Assembly (NCBI GenBank): GCA_963204795.1
Contig: CAUJHX010000027.1
Span: forward strand, 1 to 40,142
DNA length: 40,142 nucleotides
Direction: 5' to 3'
DNA from: Pseudomonadota bacterium
GTDB lineage: Bacteria; Pseudomonadota; Gammaproteobacteria; Steroidobacterales; Steroidobacteraceae
This document shows positions 36,209 to 40,142 of this stretch, piece by piece. A program made the translations under genes and the position numbers. Each line of letters begins with the position of its first letter. Positions within the stretch are counted from its first letter, which is position 1. Below the pieces are notes generated by a model. The model saw only the letters and a program-made list of their open reading frames with translations. It was not told the DNA's origin and did not search any database.

Positions 36209-36649
36209 TCACCAAGCAAGGCCTCCAAGCGCGCTTGCCAAGCAAACCACTCCTGCCAGAACAACTATCGCGAGAACGGGTAGCGGCGTTCGCTCCGCAA
36301 TGGCAAAAGCGGTCACTGCCTCAACAGCCTGGCTCCGTCCCTTTCCAATTGCCGGCAACAGCAAAGCGGCTAAGGGCGCCAAGATCGCCACGCCCACCAC
36401 GAGAAACAAGTGCCTCCAGCTTGTCGAAGGAAAATGCCCCGCCTTGAAGAGATAGACGCCAATCAAGATCGTCCCTATAAACAGGACATTGGCAACAACA
36501 ATGCTGGCGCGATACTGGGATAGCAACTGTTCTGCGCCCTTTCCCTTGTAGGCATCCGGCACATACCGAGCCCATCGCTTCATGAGCCAAAGCGACAGCA
36601 GCCCGCCGATGGTCCCCGTAATGATGGGCCTGAGTGTTTCCAGATCCAT
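36209..36649 (-). CDS. Small membrane protein, candidate immunity partner of RHS tip 3
   Basis: 146 residues from the ATG at 36649, which shares bases with the tip 3 stop (TGATG); an in-frame GTG four codons earlier is also possible. Four hydrophobic segments are seen (IITGTIGGLLSLWLM, ASIVVANVLFIGTILIGVYLF, LFLVVGVAILAPLAALLL, LPVLAIVVLAGVVCLASALG). I recognise no family. Position directly after the tip and coupled translation fit a cognate immunity protein, and a membrane location would fit a toxin that acts at or through the inner membrane. This is inference from context. Confidence 0.65.
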   Translation of the reverse strand: MDLETLRPIITGTIGGLLSLWLMKRWARYVPDAYKGKGAEQLLSQYRASIVVANVLFIGTILIGVYLFKAGHFPSTSWRHLFLVVGVAILAPLAALLLPAIGKGRSQAVEAVTAFAIAERTPLPVLAIVVLAGVVCLASALGGLAW

Positions 36650-37392
36650 CAGCGCGTACACCCACCACCAGCATTCTGGTTCGTGGTACAGGTCGGTGGG
36701 GGTGGGGGCGGCGGTGTAGGCGCAGGGGAATTGGGTGCATTGGAGCCCGCCGCTCCCGGAGTCACCGGCGGCGTCACCTCCTGCACCGTCTTCTTGACGA
36801 TTTGATGGACGGTCGCAGTTCCCGCTGCGTCGGCCGCTTCGCGACCGGCCGCCTTGATCTTGTCAGCATGAGCGGCCATGCGTTGCTCAAGCTTTGCCGC
36901 GCGATTGGCAGTTCTCGCCGACTGCTGCGCCAATGTCCTCGTCGCCTTGACGCTATTCGCGACAACCTTCGCACTCGTCGCGCCCGTCTTGATTGCATTA
37001 CCGATGCCGGGAATCACCGCAGACACTGCGCCCGCCACAAGTACGTCACCAACATCGACGTTGCTCAGCGCTTCACCAAAATCCTGGCCTGATGCCATGT
37101 TGGTCCCGACTTGAACAGCGGTCTCAAATGCAGCGCCGATCACAAAACCGACTATCCCAAACTCGCCCGTTGGATCCGTCTTGTTCGCCGGATCATTGCC
37201 GACATATGTGTAGAGGTTGAAGTCATCGTCAAGTCGCTCCGATGCACGATCGCCGTACACGCTGGCGATTCGCCCAATAGGCTCCGCTGTTTGGCTGTTC
37301 AGGCGCGGCTTTGCAAACAACAACAGCCCGCACCGCGAATACTCAGCAGCTCTTCGCGCCGTGCACACCCGCATCTGCGAGCGCTTGCTCAA
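36649..37392 (-). CDS. Displaced RHS C-terminal tip 3
   Basis: The frame opens at a TTG (37392), with an ATG at 37374, but RHS sequence starts only at 37227 with DDFNLYTYVGNDPANKTDPTG. The upstream residues are not RHS-like. After the RHS end motif comes a Gly/Ala-rich hydrophobic stretch (FGIVGFVIGAAFETAVQ), a basic helical part (VKATRTLAQQSARTANRAAKLE), then a Pro-rich linker and a final CTTNQNAGGGCTR. No toxin family is recognised. Without the RHS shell it is an orphan tip that could be re-acquired by recombination. Its stop is coupled to the next gene. Confidence 0.7.
   Translation of the reverse strand: MSKRSQMRVCTARRAAEYSRCGLLLFAKPRLNSQTAEPIGRIASVYGDRASERLDDDFNLYTYVGNDPANKTDPTGEFGIVGFVIGAAFETAVQVGTNMASGQDFGEALSNVDVGDVLVAGAVSAVIPGIGNAIKTGATSAKVVANSVKATRTLAQQSARTANRAAKLEQRMAAHADKIKAAGREAADAAGTATVHQIVKKTVQEVTPPVTPGAAGSNAPNSPAPTPPPPPPPTCTTNQNAGGGCTR
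37184..37227 (-). repeat. RHS homology block, copy C
   Basis: A 44-bp block encoding DDFNLYTYVGNDPAN. It matches the copy in the RHS gene at about 39 of 44 positions; similarity stops abruptly at the GAT GAC codons. Confidence 0.85.
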
Positions 37393-37841
37393 CTGCTTGC
37401 TGTGTTACCTGAGGCGGCAGCGCGACGCGAATGGATTCGGGTCTTTTCATCCTGAGCACCAGGACCTGGAACTCTCTATCTGCAATCGGACGCATCTCCC
37501 AGCCCCAAGCTTTGGATTGATCGATTGCGCCATCTTCGCGCTCCCACATAGAAGTGAGTGGTTGTGATGCGAACACTGGGAATCAGTAGAAAAAGCGCCC
37601 ACTGAAGGAGAGCGATCGCAACGGCCAGTCCGATAAACAGCAGGAGAGCTGTCCAGAACGGCATGACCCGCGCCCCCGCCGCGAGCGCAAGTGTCCAGAT
37701 AGCGCACATGATGAGGACTACAGGCAATCCTTCGACAAACAGATCTGCAATGAAGAGACGCCGAAGGCCACCTGAGATGCGTGCCAGGATAAGCCGAGCC
37801 CCTGGCGGCTCTGACCATTGGAGAAGTTGCGTTCCAAACAT
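37343..37841 (-). pseudogene. Frameshifted small membrane protein, candidate immunity partner of tip 2
   Basis: The ATG at 37841 (AGGATA upstream) opens a frame with two or three hydrophobic segments (GLPVVLIMCAIWTLALAAG, FWTALLLFIGLAVAIALLQW) that ends at 37476. A second frame, open until 37343, takes over near 37560 and continues plausibly: AIDQSKAWGWEMRPIADREF, QVLVLRMKRPESIRVALPP, QVTQQAVEQALADAGV. The two parts look like one protein of about 165 residues split by a one-base change. It follows tip 2 by 27 bp. Confidence 0.55.
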
Positions 37842-37868
37842 CGGAATATCCTATTGCGGCGCCCCTCA

Positions 37869-38516: not shown

Positions 38517-38557
38517 GGCAAATTGACAGCTTCTTGACCGGTCGTCTCGTTTTAGAA

Positions 38558-38854
38558 CTACGCTCCCCGGCTGTTCAGAATAACAAATAGAGACAGCACA
38601 AGGACGACGGCCGTAACTGCAACGCTGATTGCGATGGAAAGCGACCAGCGCCACGATGGAGCGATCTCCCACGTCCTCCAGGCGATATTTCCGCTCACCA
38701 CCACTGCCAGCGCAAGTCCCGCGATCAATACGGAGTACGTCCGTCGATCATCGAAGTATCTTGGGAGCACGAAAATGTAGACCATCGAAATGAGCGCTAC
38801 TATCACGGCGGCTGCAACCAGCTCCACCACTACAAACTTGACGATGGCACGCAT
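38558..38854 (-). CDS. Small membrane protein, candidate immunity partner of the RHS tip
   Basis: 98 residues from the ATG at 38854, with GGAG 8 bases upstream. A start at 38905, which overlaps the RHS stop by 20 bp, would add 17 residues (GSAPTSDDDKGSGVPS) and lacks a ribosome site. Three hydrophobic segments are seen (FVVVELVAAAVIVALISMVYIFV, YSVLIAGLALAVVVSGNIAW, LSIAISVAVTAVVLVLSLFVIL). No family is recognised. It directly follows the RHS toxin tip, where cognate immunity genes normally lie. Confidence 0.65.
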   Translation of the reverse strand: MRAIVKFVVVELVAAAVIVALISMVYIFVLPRYFDDRRTYSVLIAGLALAVVVSGNIAWRTWEIAPSWRWSLSIAISVAVTAVVLVLSLFVILNSRGA

Positions 38855-38885
38855 CGACGGCACTCCGGATCCCTTGTCATCGTCA

Positions 38886-40142
38886 CTAGTTGGTGCACTT
38901 CCCATGCGCGTCGCAGGTAATCGTTTTCGGGATTCGAGATCCAGTCTGAGTGATTGTCCCGGTGACGGTGCCATTTGAGTTCACCTTTACGGAGTCATAT
39001 CCCTTCGCGGCGGCCGTTTGTTTTTCGAGAGCCTGAACCGATTTCGCAGTTCCGATCAGCTTGTCCGCCTCTGTCTTGCAGTTATCGAAGAGAATCTTGT
39101 TCGTGTGCTCGTTCTCGTCCTTGTTAAGCAAGTCGAATGCCTTCCGAACGTAAGGATCCAGCTTATCGTCGCCGACCTGCTCTGCCCAGCCTTTGTCGAT
39201 CGCCTCTCGAGCCGTCTTCAAATCGAGCGTCTGGTCAATATTCCAACCGTTCAGGTTGGCGTCATTTCCCCAACTGTATGTGTGATCGAGCGTCCCCCTC
39301 GCGTTCGTAGTGACGATAAACGTGTGTGTGATCGGATTCCATCTTCGATTCGCATCGTCACCAAATCTCGCAAGATCACGGTTGATCTTGTAGGTTGCGA
39401 GACCTGTTGGATCGATTCCGTTCAGCGGATCATTGCCGACATAGGCATAGAGGTTGAAGTCATCCTCATACCCGATCGGATCGGTCTGCAGAAACCGCCC
39501 GAGCCGCGGGTGATAGAAGCGCGCCTTGTAGTAGAGCAGGCCCAGCTCGGGGAGCGCCGCCTGGCCCGTGTACTGAAAGCGCCCGCTGTTGGCGGCGCCG
39601 GGCACCCCGTAGGCGTCGTAGGTGTTCTGCTGCAGCAGGGCGCCCGCGGCCGTGGAGGCCGCCACGATCGAGCCCTGGTGATCGGCGTGCAGGTAGCGGC
39701 GGGTGGCACCGGACACCGTTGCTCCCTCGTACCACAGCAGCGGCTCATCGACGCCGGCGCCGTGCACGTAGCGGCGCAGCAGCGTGCCGCTGCTCGCGTA
39801 CTCGCCGATCAGCCGGTCCCCGTCGTAGAGAAAGCGGGTGACGCCGGCGGAGATGCTGGCCTCCCACAGCCGCCCGAGCGGGTCGTAGGTGAGCGTGGCG
39901 CTCTGGGCGCCACTCACGCTGACGAGCCGGTTCTCGGTGTCGTAGCCGAAGCTGCTCGCCCCATCGCCCGTGAGATTCCCGTTGGCGTCCCAGCTGTGGG
40001 TCGCCCCGCCGACCGCGGTGTACTGGTTCAGTCCGTTCACCGTGTAGCTGCGAATCGAGGAGACGGGCGCGAACTCATAGGCGCTGTTCGACACCACGCG
40101 GGTGAGGATCTGGCTCGCGGGATTGAAAGCAAATCCGAAGGA
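38886..40142 (-). CDS. RHS/YD-repeat protein with toxin-like C-terminal tip (5' end beyond window)
   Basis: The frame runs open to the right edge, so only the last 418 residues are visible. YD-type repeats (YTVNGLNQYTAVGGATHSWD, GNLTGDG, FGYDTENRLVSVSG, LTYDPLGRLWEAS) lead to the core end: YLHADHQGSIVAAS, NTYDAYGVPG, GLLYYKARFYHPRLGRFLQT, DPIGYEDDFNLYAYVGNDPLN, GIDPTG. The RHS shell encloses a C-terminal toxin. The variable tip is about 190 residues: PITHTFIVTTN, YSWGNDANLNGWN, KLDPYVRKAFDLLNKDENEH, LFDNCKTEADKLIG, ending TCDAHGKCTN. A His on an early strand and a later Asn-Cys-Lys at a helix start suggest a permuted papain/LRAT-like fold, by inference only. Delivery is probably by type VI secretion or surface export, not shown here. 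Confidence 0.88.
   Translation of the reverse strand, partial: SFGFAFNPASQILTRVVSNSAYEFAPVSSIRSYTVNGLNQYTAVGGATHSWDANGNLTGDGASSFGYDTENRLVSVSGAQSATLTYDPLGRLWEASISAGVTRFLYDGDRLIGEYASSGTLLRRYVHGAGVDEPLLWYEGATVSGATRRYLHADHQGSIVAASTAAGALLQQNTYDAYGVPGAANSGRFQYTGQAALPELGLLYYKARFYHPRLGRFLQTDPIGYEDDFNLYAYVGNDPLNGIDPTGLATYKINRDLARFGDDANRRWNPITHTFIVTTNARGTLDHTYSWGNDANLNGWNIDQTLDLKTAREAIDKGWAEQVGDDKLDPYVRKAFDLLNKDENEHTNKILFDNCKTEADKLIGTAKSVQALEKQTAAAKGYDSVKVNSNGTVTGTITQTGSRIPKTITCDAHGKCTN
39421..39464 (-). repeat. RHS homology block, copy A (in the RHS gene)
   Basis: A 44-bp segment at the core/tip boundary that recurs at 38473-38516 and 37184-37227. It marks where displaced tips share homology with the full gene. 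Confidence 0.88.

What the first reader, a model, noticed from the sequence alone, without database searches (positions are those of the whole stretch)
36209..40142. Array of three RHS tip / membrane-protein modules joined by one 44-bp homology block
The RHS gene is followed on the same strand by two displaced C-terminal tips. All three tips begin at the same DDFNLY-YVGND block, and similarity stops sharply at the GAT GAC codons. Each tip is followed by a small multi-helix membrane protein with no recognised family. Orphan rhs tips are known, but I do not recognise these toxin types or a consistent membrane-protein partner.
Basis: partly seen in the sequence, partly recalled or inferred. Interest (0 to 1): 0.72.

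Follow-up and report, generated by a model that had tools for sequence, protein, structure and literature searches.

The report
Displaced RHS toxin tips with membrane partners
A bacterial toxin-delivery (RHS) gene is followed by two cast-off toxin ends, each beside a small membrane protein that likely protects its owner; the toxin ends are predicted to attack the envelope of rival cells, and the array likely is another product of a known way in which bacteria swap toxin ends.

Summary
On the minus strand the 3' part of an RHS gene (the contig ends inside it) is followed by two displaced tips. All three tips are headed by the same 21-codon core-end piece; similarity is at background before GAT GAC and 87-97% in the next 30 bases. 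Each tip is followed by a small hydrophobic protein. This matches RHS C-terminal displacement (Jackson 2009); same-genus genomes carry the core with other tips.

Tip 3 is a sequence homologue of the Tse5 pore-forming toxin (E 3e-10). Tip 1 has an invariant Asn-Cys and is predicted to fold like permuted NlpC/P60 enzymes (suggestive only). Tip 2 is glycine-zipper-like and broken by an in-frame TAG. The membrane proteins are not one family; proteins like the tip 1 partner follow tip 1 homologues in other taxa.

Less ordinary: in this core clade 3 of 5 displaced tips start exactly at the same Asp-Asp codons and a fourth within about five codons, and tip 1 shares a 43-residue double-cysteine tail with two otherwise unrelated proteins. 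New variant of a known kind, moderate interest.

The parts
39402..40142 (-). 3' part of the RHS core (247 codons; the 5' part lies beyond the contig end), ending ..LQTDPIGYEDDFNLYAYVGNDPLNGIDPTG
   Evidence: TIGR03696 Rhs_assc_core 81.9 bits against a cut-off of 32.5; no other part of the gene found in the assembly with a same-genus RHS as query
39402..39464 (-). core-end block, attached copy, begins GAT GAC (DDFNLYAYVGNDPLNGIDPTG)
38886..39401 (-). tip 1 (attached): predicted permuted NlpC/P60-like toxin, 171 aa plus stop; predicted nucleophile Cys108 and base His26
   Evidence: A1 columns, AF2 model pLDDT 86.4, VIA ranks 1-3 and 6
38889..39017 (-). 43-residue C-terminal tail of tip 1 with two cysteines, shared with otherwise unrelated proteins P0021 and P0023
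38558..38854 (-). MP1, 98 aa, three hydrophobic segments, likely immunity protein of tip 1
   Evidence: hydrophobic proteins of 100 and 101 aa at the same place after tip 1 homologues in L067 and L069, frame-broken hydrophobic frames in L068
38454..38516 (-). core-end block, first displaced copy
37869..38516 (-). tip 2 (displaced), Gly/Ala-rich, interrupted by an in-frame TAG at 38193-38195; pieces 38196-38516 and 37872-38192 were searched apart
   Evidence: its head resembles that of the tip in L055
37476..37841 (-). MP2, 121 aa, two hydrophobic segments, likely immunity protein of tip 2
   Evidence: no family over a curated cut-off
37165..37227 (-). core-end block, second displaced copy
36649..37227 (-). 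tip 3 (displaced), homologue of the Tse5 pore-forming toxin fragment
   Evidence: PDB 8cp6_C, profile E 3.7e-12, single sequence E 3e-10
36209..36649 (-). MP3, 146 aa (ATG overlaps the tip 3 stop), multi-helix membrane protein, likely immunity protein of tip 3
   Evidence: no relative at E <= 0.001 in 285 other genomes of the order

Best explanation
The segment is the 3' end of an RHS gene followed by two displaced RHS tips, each headed by the same 21-codon core-end piece, and it likely arose by repeated C-terminal displacement, each tip being a predicted antibacterial toxin and the small membrane protein behind it its likely immunity protein. The attached tip 1 is predicted to be a Cys-His hydrolase of the permuted NlpC/P60 type that would act in the periplasm. 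Tip 3 is homologous to the Tse5 pore-forming fragment and would depolarise the inner membrane (homology shown, activity inferred). Tip 2 looks like a glycine-zipper membrane toxin and is now broken by a stop. An incoming circle that carries core-end block, tip and immunity gene would recombine with the block of the resident gene, take over the core and push the old tip and its immunity gene downstream, leaving a stock of immunity genes (inferred, after Jackson's model).
Confidence: 0.82

Rival explanations
1. The downstream pieces are remnants of whole RHS gene copies that decayed in place (tandem duplication and deletion), not displaced tips.
For: Tip 2 has an in-frame stop. In L024 a second RHS fragment keeps at least 354 codons upstream of its block, as expected of a decaying copy.
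Against: In the window nothing of the core is left upstream of GAT GAC in either displaced copy, at the same codon in both. Random decay would leave different lengths. The tips are unrelated to one another.
Confidence: 0.1
2. The displaced tips with their membrane proteins are expressed as stand-alone toxin-immunity or regulatory pairs and are kept for that role.
For: A Salmonella paper on a full-length rhs and its orphan reports RHS elements as toxin-antitoxin modules (title and start of abstract of PMC7043789 in the listing). The MP3 start overlaps the tip 3 stop, so the two are likely co-translated.
Against: Tip 2 is broken, and within 50 codons upstream of its block there is one in-frame start codon (a GTG, 46 codons before). 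Promoters were not examined.
Confidence: 0.15
3. Tip 1 is not an NlpC/P60-like enzyme but another alpha/beta toxin that happens to share a strand-helix arrangement.
Against: The best rows over residues 1-120 are, as I recall, of one superfamily, and an invariant Asn-Cys with an upstream His is, as I recall, the pattern of that superfamily.
Confidence: 0.3

Closest known systems
RHS C-terminal tip displacement arrays (Serratia marcescens SMA1610 locus; Jackson et al. 2009, PMC2935791)
   Same: Intact-core gene followed by fragments with unrelated tips, core GC higher than tip GC, some fragments broken by stops or frameshifts (section 10 read; passages).
   Different: There the fragments keep partial cores of varying length that are nearly identical to the resident core; here only 21 diverged codons remain, and the border is the same codon pair in 3 of 5 displaced tips of this core clade (a fourth within about five codons).
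Tse5 / Tsi5 of Pseudomonas aeruginosa (RHS pore-forming toxin and membrane immunity protein)
   Same: Tip 3 is a sequence homologue over 123 of its residues and is followed by a small membrane protein, as Tse5 is countered by one.
   Different: Tip 3 is displaced from its core and ends in a proline-rich double-cysteine tail; no T6SS sheath gene was found in the genome. Similarity of MP3 to Tsi5 was not tested.
TseH, T6SS peptidoglycan hydrolase effector of Vibrio cholerae (structure 6v98)
   Different: No sequence match found; TseH is delivered with a PAAR adaptor and neutralised by TsiH in the periplasm (passages of PMC7721734), whereas tip 1 sits on an RHS core and has a three-helix membrane partner.

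Membership tests
RHS protein with polymorphic tip | RHS-associated core domain ending in DPxG, directly followed by the tip | tested here: met
   TIGR03696 81.9 bits, cut-off 32.5, residues 175-248 of the frame
RHS C-terminal displacement array | Downstream fragments headed by core-end sequence and carrying unrelated tips | tested here: met
   tips unrelated to each other
RHS C-terminal displacement array | Tip exchange at the core end among related genomes | tested here: met
   Same-genus G001, G002, G003, G006 carry the core with other tips
RHS C-terminal displacement array | The same locus seen with and without a given tip in strains of one species | not testable with these tools
   One genome per species is held
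Tse5-type pore-forming toxin | Sequence homology to the Tse5 toxin fragment | tested here: met
   E 3e-10, residues 5-127 of the tip to 16-139 of the chain; profile E 3.7e-12
Tse5-type pore-forming toxin | Forms pores and depolarises the membrane | not testable with these tools
   Needs expression
Tse5-type pore-forming toxin | Countered by an integral membrane immunity protein | tested here: inconclusive
   MP3 is hydrophobic and its start overlaps the tip 3 stop; specificity not shown, relation to Tsi5 not tested
Permuted NlpC/P60-like hydrolase (tip 1) | Fold | tested here: inconclusive
Permuted NlpC/P60-like hydrolase (tip 1) | Conserved His before a C-terminal Asn-Cys (pattern recalled) | tested here: met
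   Asn107-Cys108 17 of 17, His26 15 of 16 rows that cover it
T6SS-delivered RHS effector | T6SS genes in the genome and a PAAR-type N-terminus | tested here: inconclusive
   No VipB/TssC match in G000, 91.8% complete; the N-terminus of this RHS was not found in the assembly; 8 of 10 related RHS frames printed, one of them same-genus (L024), have a Sec-like signal by eye

The most novel reading that the evidence does not exclude
In this RHS lineage tips travel as minimal cassettes: a fixed 21-codon core-end head that starts at one Asp-Asp codon pair, a toxin body, and an immunity gene, with several unrelated toxin bodies closed by one shared double-cysteine tail. Both ends of the toxin are thus conserved and can serve recombination or envelope folding, and the system is a Sec-exported, T6SS-independent RHS weapon aimed at the envelope.
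Probability: 0.2. Interest if true: 0.6.

Novelty: new variant of a known kind. Interest (0 to 1): 0.4.

Why it matters
It gives a displaced RHS tip of the Tse5 pore-forming type and an attached tip that reaches no Pfam or NCBIfam entry, with a candidate immunity protein that recurs beside it in other bacterial taxa. A fixed, very short core-end head would make Jackson's circle model directly testable: the circle should carry one block and nothing else of the core. A tail shared by unrelated toxins would show that RHS tips can have a second conserved end.

Tried and rejected
One common membrane-partner family: rejected, no significant similarity among MP1-3, and 8 of 56 tips elsewhere have a membrane partner by a crude hydropathy rule. 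Dropped before that count: the three window rows and one misregistered row of L053. 10 of the 56 had no ORF within 100 nt; the rule called the likely signal-peptide protein of L027 soluble; L123's partner is membrane by the rule and not by that; L108, counted under 'other' cores, has a membrane partner and may belong to this core clade.

Hydrophobic tip goes with membrane partner: not supported in the sample without the window (Mann-Whitney p 0.47 for maximal hydropathy, 0.15 for Gly+Ala).

A double-cysteine ending as a rule for this core clade: 10 of 24 against 3 of 34 other tips (two rows dropped), shuffled expectation 0.8 of 24, but the pattern was drawn from many of those same tips; of six tips first looked at afterwards (L089, L118, L119, L123; L153, L154) none has it. 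Not claimed as a rule.

The 43-residue tail elsewhere: no match at E <= 0.001 in 245 other genomes of the order (best other E 0.062); a database search with the tail alone had one candidate, P0009. It rests. P0021 has an RHS core end; P0023 shows none in the protein held, so it is not shown to be an RHS tip.

Fixed joint: L032 is less sharp than the rest (0.83 in the DD codons, 0.33 in the next 15 bases, 0.87 after), and L024 keeps a long core; L128 could not be compared because of a length difference.

Frame break in MP2: a 77-aa frame (37346-37576) overlaps its end, but shows no match to the L055 partner or Pfam; left open. MP2 to the L055 partner: E 1.8, not significant.

Structure of tip 3: unusable model, not searched. 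Tip 1 and tip 3 in plasmids: none; in viral contigs: none. P0014 as query hit 1181 plasmid records; only H2 and H4 were opened, and H2, whose end was translated, is an RhsC with another tip, so row 4 of alignment A5 is not used and the rest was not followed.

PHROGs was not searched; PADLOC gave nothing of weight. VIA rows absent for other families are not taken as evidence against them.
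Full report
WHAT IS THERE. The window is contig C27 (40142 bases) of a 3.17 Mb draft genome. On the minus strand, from the contig end downward, lie: the last 247 codons of an RHS core (40142-39402), tip 1 (39401-38886), MP1 (38854-38558), a core-end block and tip 2 (38516-37869, interrupted by an in-frame TAG at 38193-38195), MP2 (37841-37476), a third block and tip 3 (37227-36649) and MP3 (36649-36209). The three blocks encode DDFNLYxYVGNDPxNxxDPTG. Before GAT GAC the copies agree at 0.20-0.37, after it at 0.87-0.97 for 30 bases and 0.67-0.72 for the next 36, then at background. 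Of these proteins only the RHS core and repeats reach a curated Pfam or NCBIfam cut-off.

RELATED GENOMES. A search of 217 genomes of the family with the block as DNA matched 15, the own one included; the core-end family TIGR03696 is in 86 of 217. Same-genus genomes G001, G002, G003 and G006 share the core (..LQTDPI[GA]Y[ER]D[DEG][FL]NLYAYV..) but carry other tips, and none of the tips collected from the family resembles a window tip at E <= 1e-3 (of tip 2 only the first piece was compared). Tip 1 relatives were found in 1 of 195 other genomes of the order (a partial match) and tip 3 relatives in 1 of 195 (weak, with four stops inside). A scan of the 84,980-species collection gave three tip 1 loci out of 98 pattern matches: L067, L068 and L069. 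The protein database holds 24 proteins at E <= 1e-3 for tip 1 (P0021 and P0023 share only the tail; two are named Salmonella bongori by a source, P0014 and P0017) and 11 for tip 3, one of which (P0025, 99% identical) is listed as encoded by the window or its like. This patchy spread fits lateral movement of tips.

THE JOINT. In the loci of this core clade that hold two or more blocks (window, L024, L032, L055) there are five displaced copies. In three (window twice, L055) similarity to the resident core begins exactly at the DD codons. In L032 the DD codons agree at 0.83, the next 15 bases at 0.33 and the following 15 at 0.87, so the border lies within about five codons. In L024 a long core is kept. 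The genomes of the first four belong to three genera (g1, g3, g23). Loci of other core types (L077, L080, L109, L132) keep similarity for at least about 60 bases further upstream. Jackson and colleagues describe core fragments of varying lengths and a model with a circular intermediate (passages; section 10). In that model a circle with a short core piece leaves a displaced tip with the same short piece, so a fixed border would be inherited once it had arisen (my inference). The block is short: 29 identical bases between the first two copies.

TIP 3. It matches the 149-residue Tse5 toxin chain (8cp6_C) at E 3e-10 as a single sequence and 3.7e-12 as a profile. Tse5-CT forms membrane pores and is countered by Tsi5, taken to be an integral membrane protein with two predicted helices (passages of PMC9637101; of PMC10684867). 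MP3 fits that place but was not compared with Tsi5, and no relative of MP3 was found in 285 other genomes of the order.

TIP 2. It is Gly/Ala-rich with ten glycine-zipper starts in its first piece against 4.7 expected from shuffles (p 0.013, not corrected for the four pieces tested; tip 3 has 4 against 1.6, p 0.084). Glycine zippers occur in membrane-depolarising toxins such as EsxX (passages of PMC12744356). The in-frame TAG cuts it; I searched the two pieces apart and restored nothing.

MEMBRANE PARTNERS. MP1, MP2 and MP3 do not significantly resemble one another. Outside the window 8 of 56 tips are followed by a protein with two or more hydrophobic segments (2 of 21 of this core clade, 6 of 35 others), 18 by a likely lipoprotein or signal-peptide protein and the rest by soluble, one-helix or no close ORF. 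Three of three in the window is thus unusual, and is best read as three envelope-acting toxins each with its own immunity protein rather than one partner family. Against a simple rule, tip hydropathy did not go with a membrane partner in the sample.

A SECOND CONSERVED END. The last 43 residues of tip 1 (KGYDSVKVNSNGTVTGT..GSRI..TCD..GKC) recur at 72-73% identity at the end of P0021 and P0023, whose bodies show no similarity to the body of tip 1 (E 0.44 and 0.17; tails E 3e-17 and 3e-20); P0021 and P0023 share 60 residues with each other. P0021 carries an RHS core end; in P0023 none is seen. The tail is modelled with good confidence as three strands. Its role is unknown. A looser double-cysteine ending is common among the tips of this core clade, but six tips examined later lack it (see Tried and rejected).

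DELIVERY. The RHS N-terminus was not found in the assembly. No T6SS sheath gene was found in this 91.8% complete genome, and 8 of 10 related RHS frames printed, one of them same-genus (L024), have a Sec-like signal by eye. A route other than T6SS is plausible, not shown.

VERDICT. A new RHS displacement array with a Tse5-like and a likely NlpC/P60-like tip, each with a candidate membrane immunity protein. The mechanism is known in kind; the short, largely fixed joint and the shared tail are the unusual parts.

Noticed in passing
window 38889-39017; P0021, P0023: A 43-residue double-cysteine tail ends three otherwise unrelated proteins, two of them RHS tips.
   Followed up: partly
window 36649-39401; L024, L026, L027, L032, L053-L055, L060: Many tips of this core clade end in two cysteines close to the C-terminus; six tips looked at later do not.
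   Followed up: partly
window 35740-36185, + strand: A DUF1902/HicB-like frame followed by a HicA toxin frame (PF07927, E 3.8e-21), converging with the RHS array.
   Followed up: no
window 37343-37576, - strand: A 77-aa frame overlaps and runs past the end of MP2; MP2 may be frame-broken, not settled.
   Followed up: partly
L120 (G284:C2): Six tandem RHS-end modules with near-identical core ends (SVDPVAFTEQNAMSFNRY..) and related tip heads but different tip ends.
   Followed up: no
L067 (Zetaproteobacteria), 1-5788: An array of three RHS ends with a tip 1 homologue in the middle and small multi-helix frames among them.
   Followed up: no
L056, 5126-5449: A 108-aa frame without the block ends in TGSRIPQ..C....C, like the tip 1 tail, and is followed by a likely lipoprotein by eye.
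   Followed up: no
L068, 6210-6892: A second downstream RHS end in Actinobacillus vicugnae with YSWGP..GWD and NNC motifs, in two frames, resembling tip 1.
   Followed up: no
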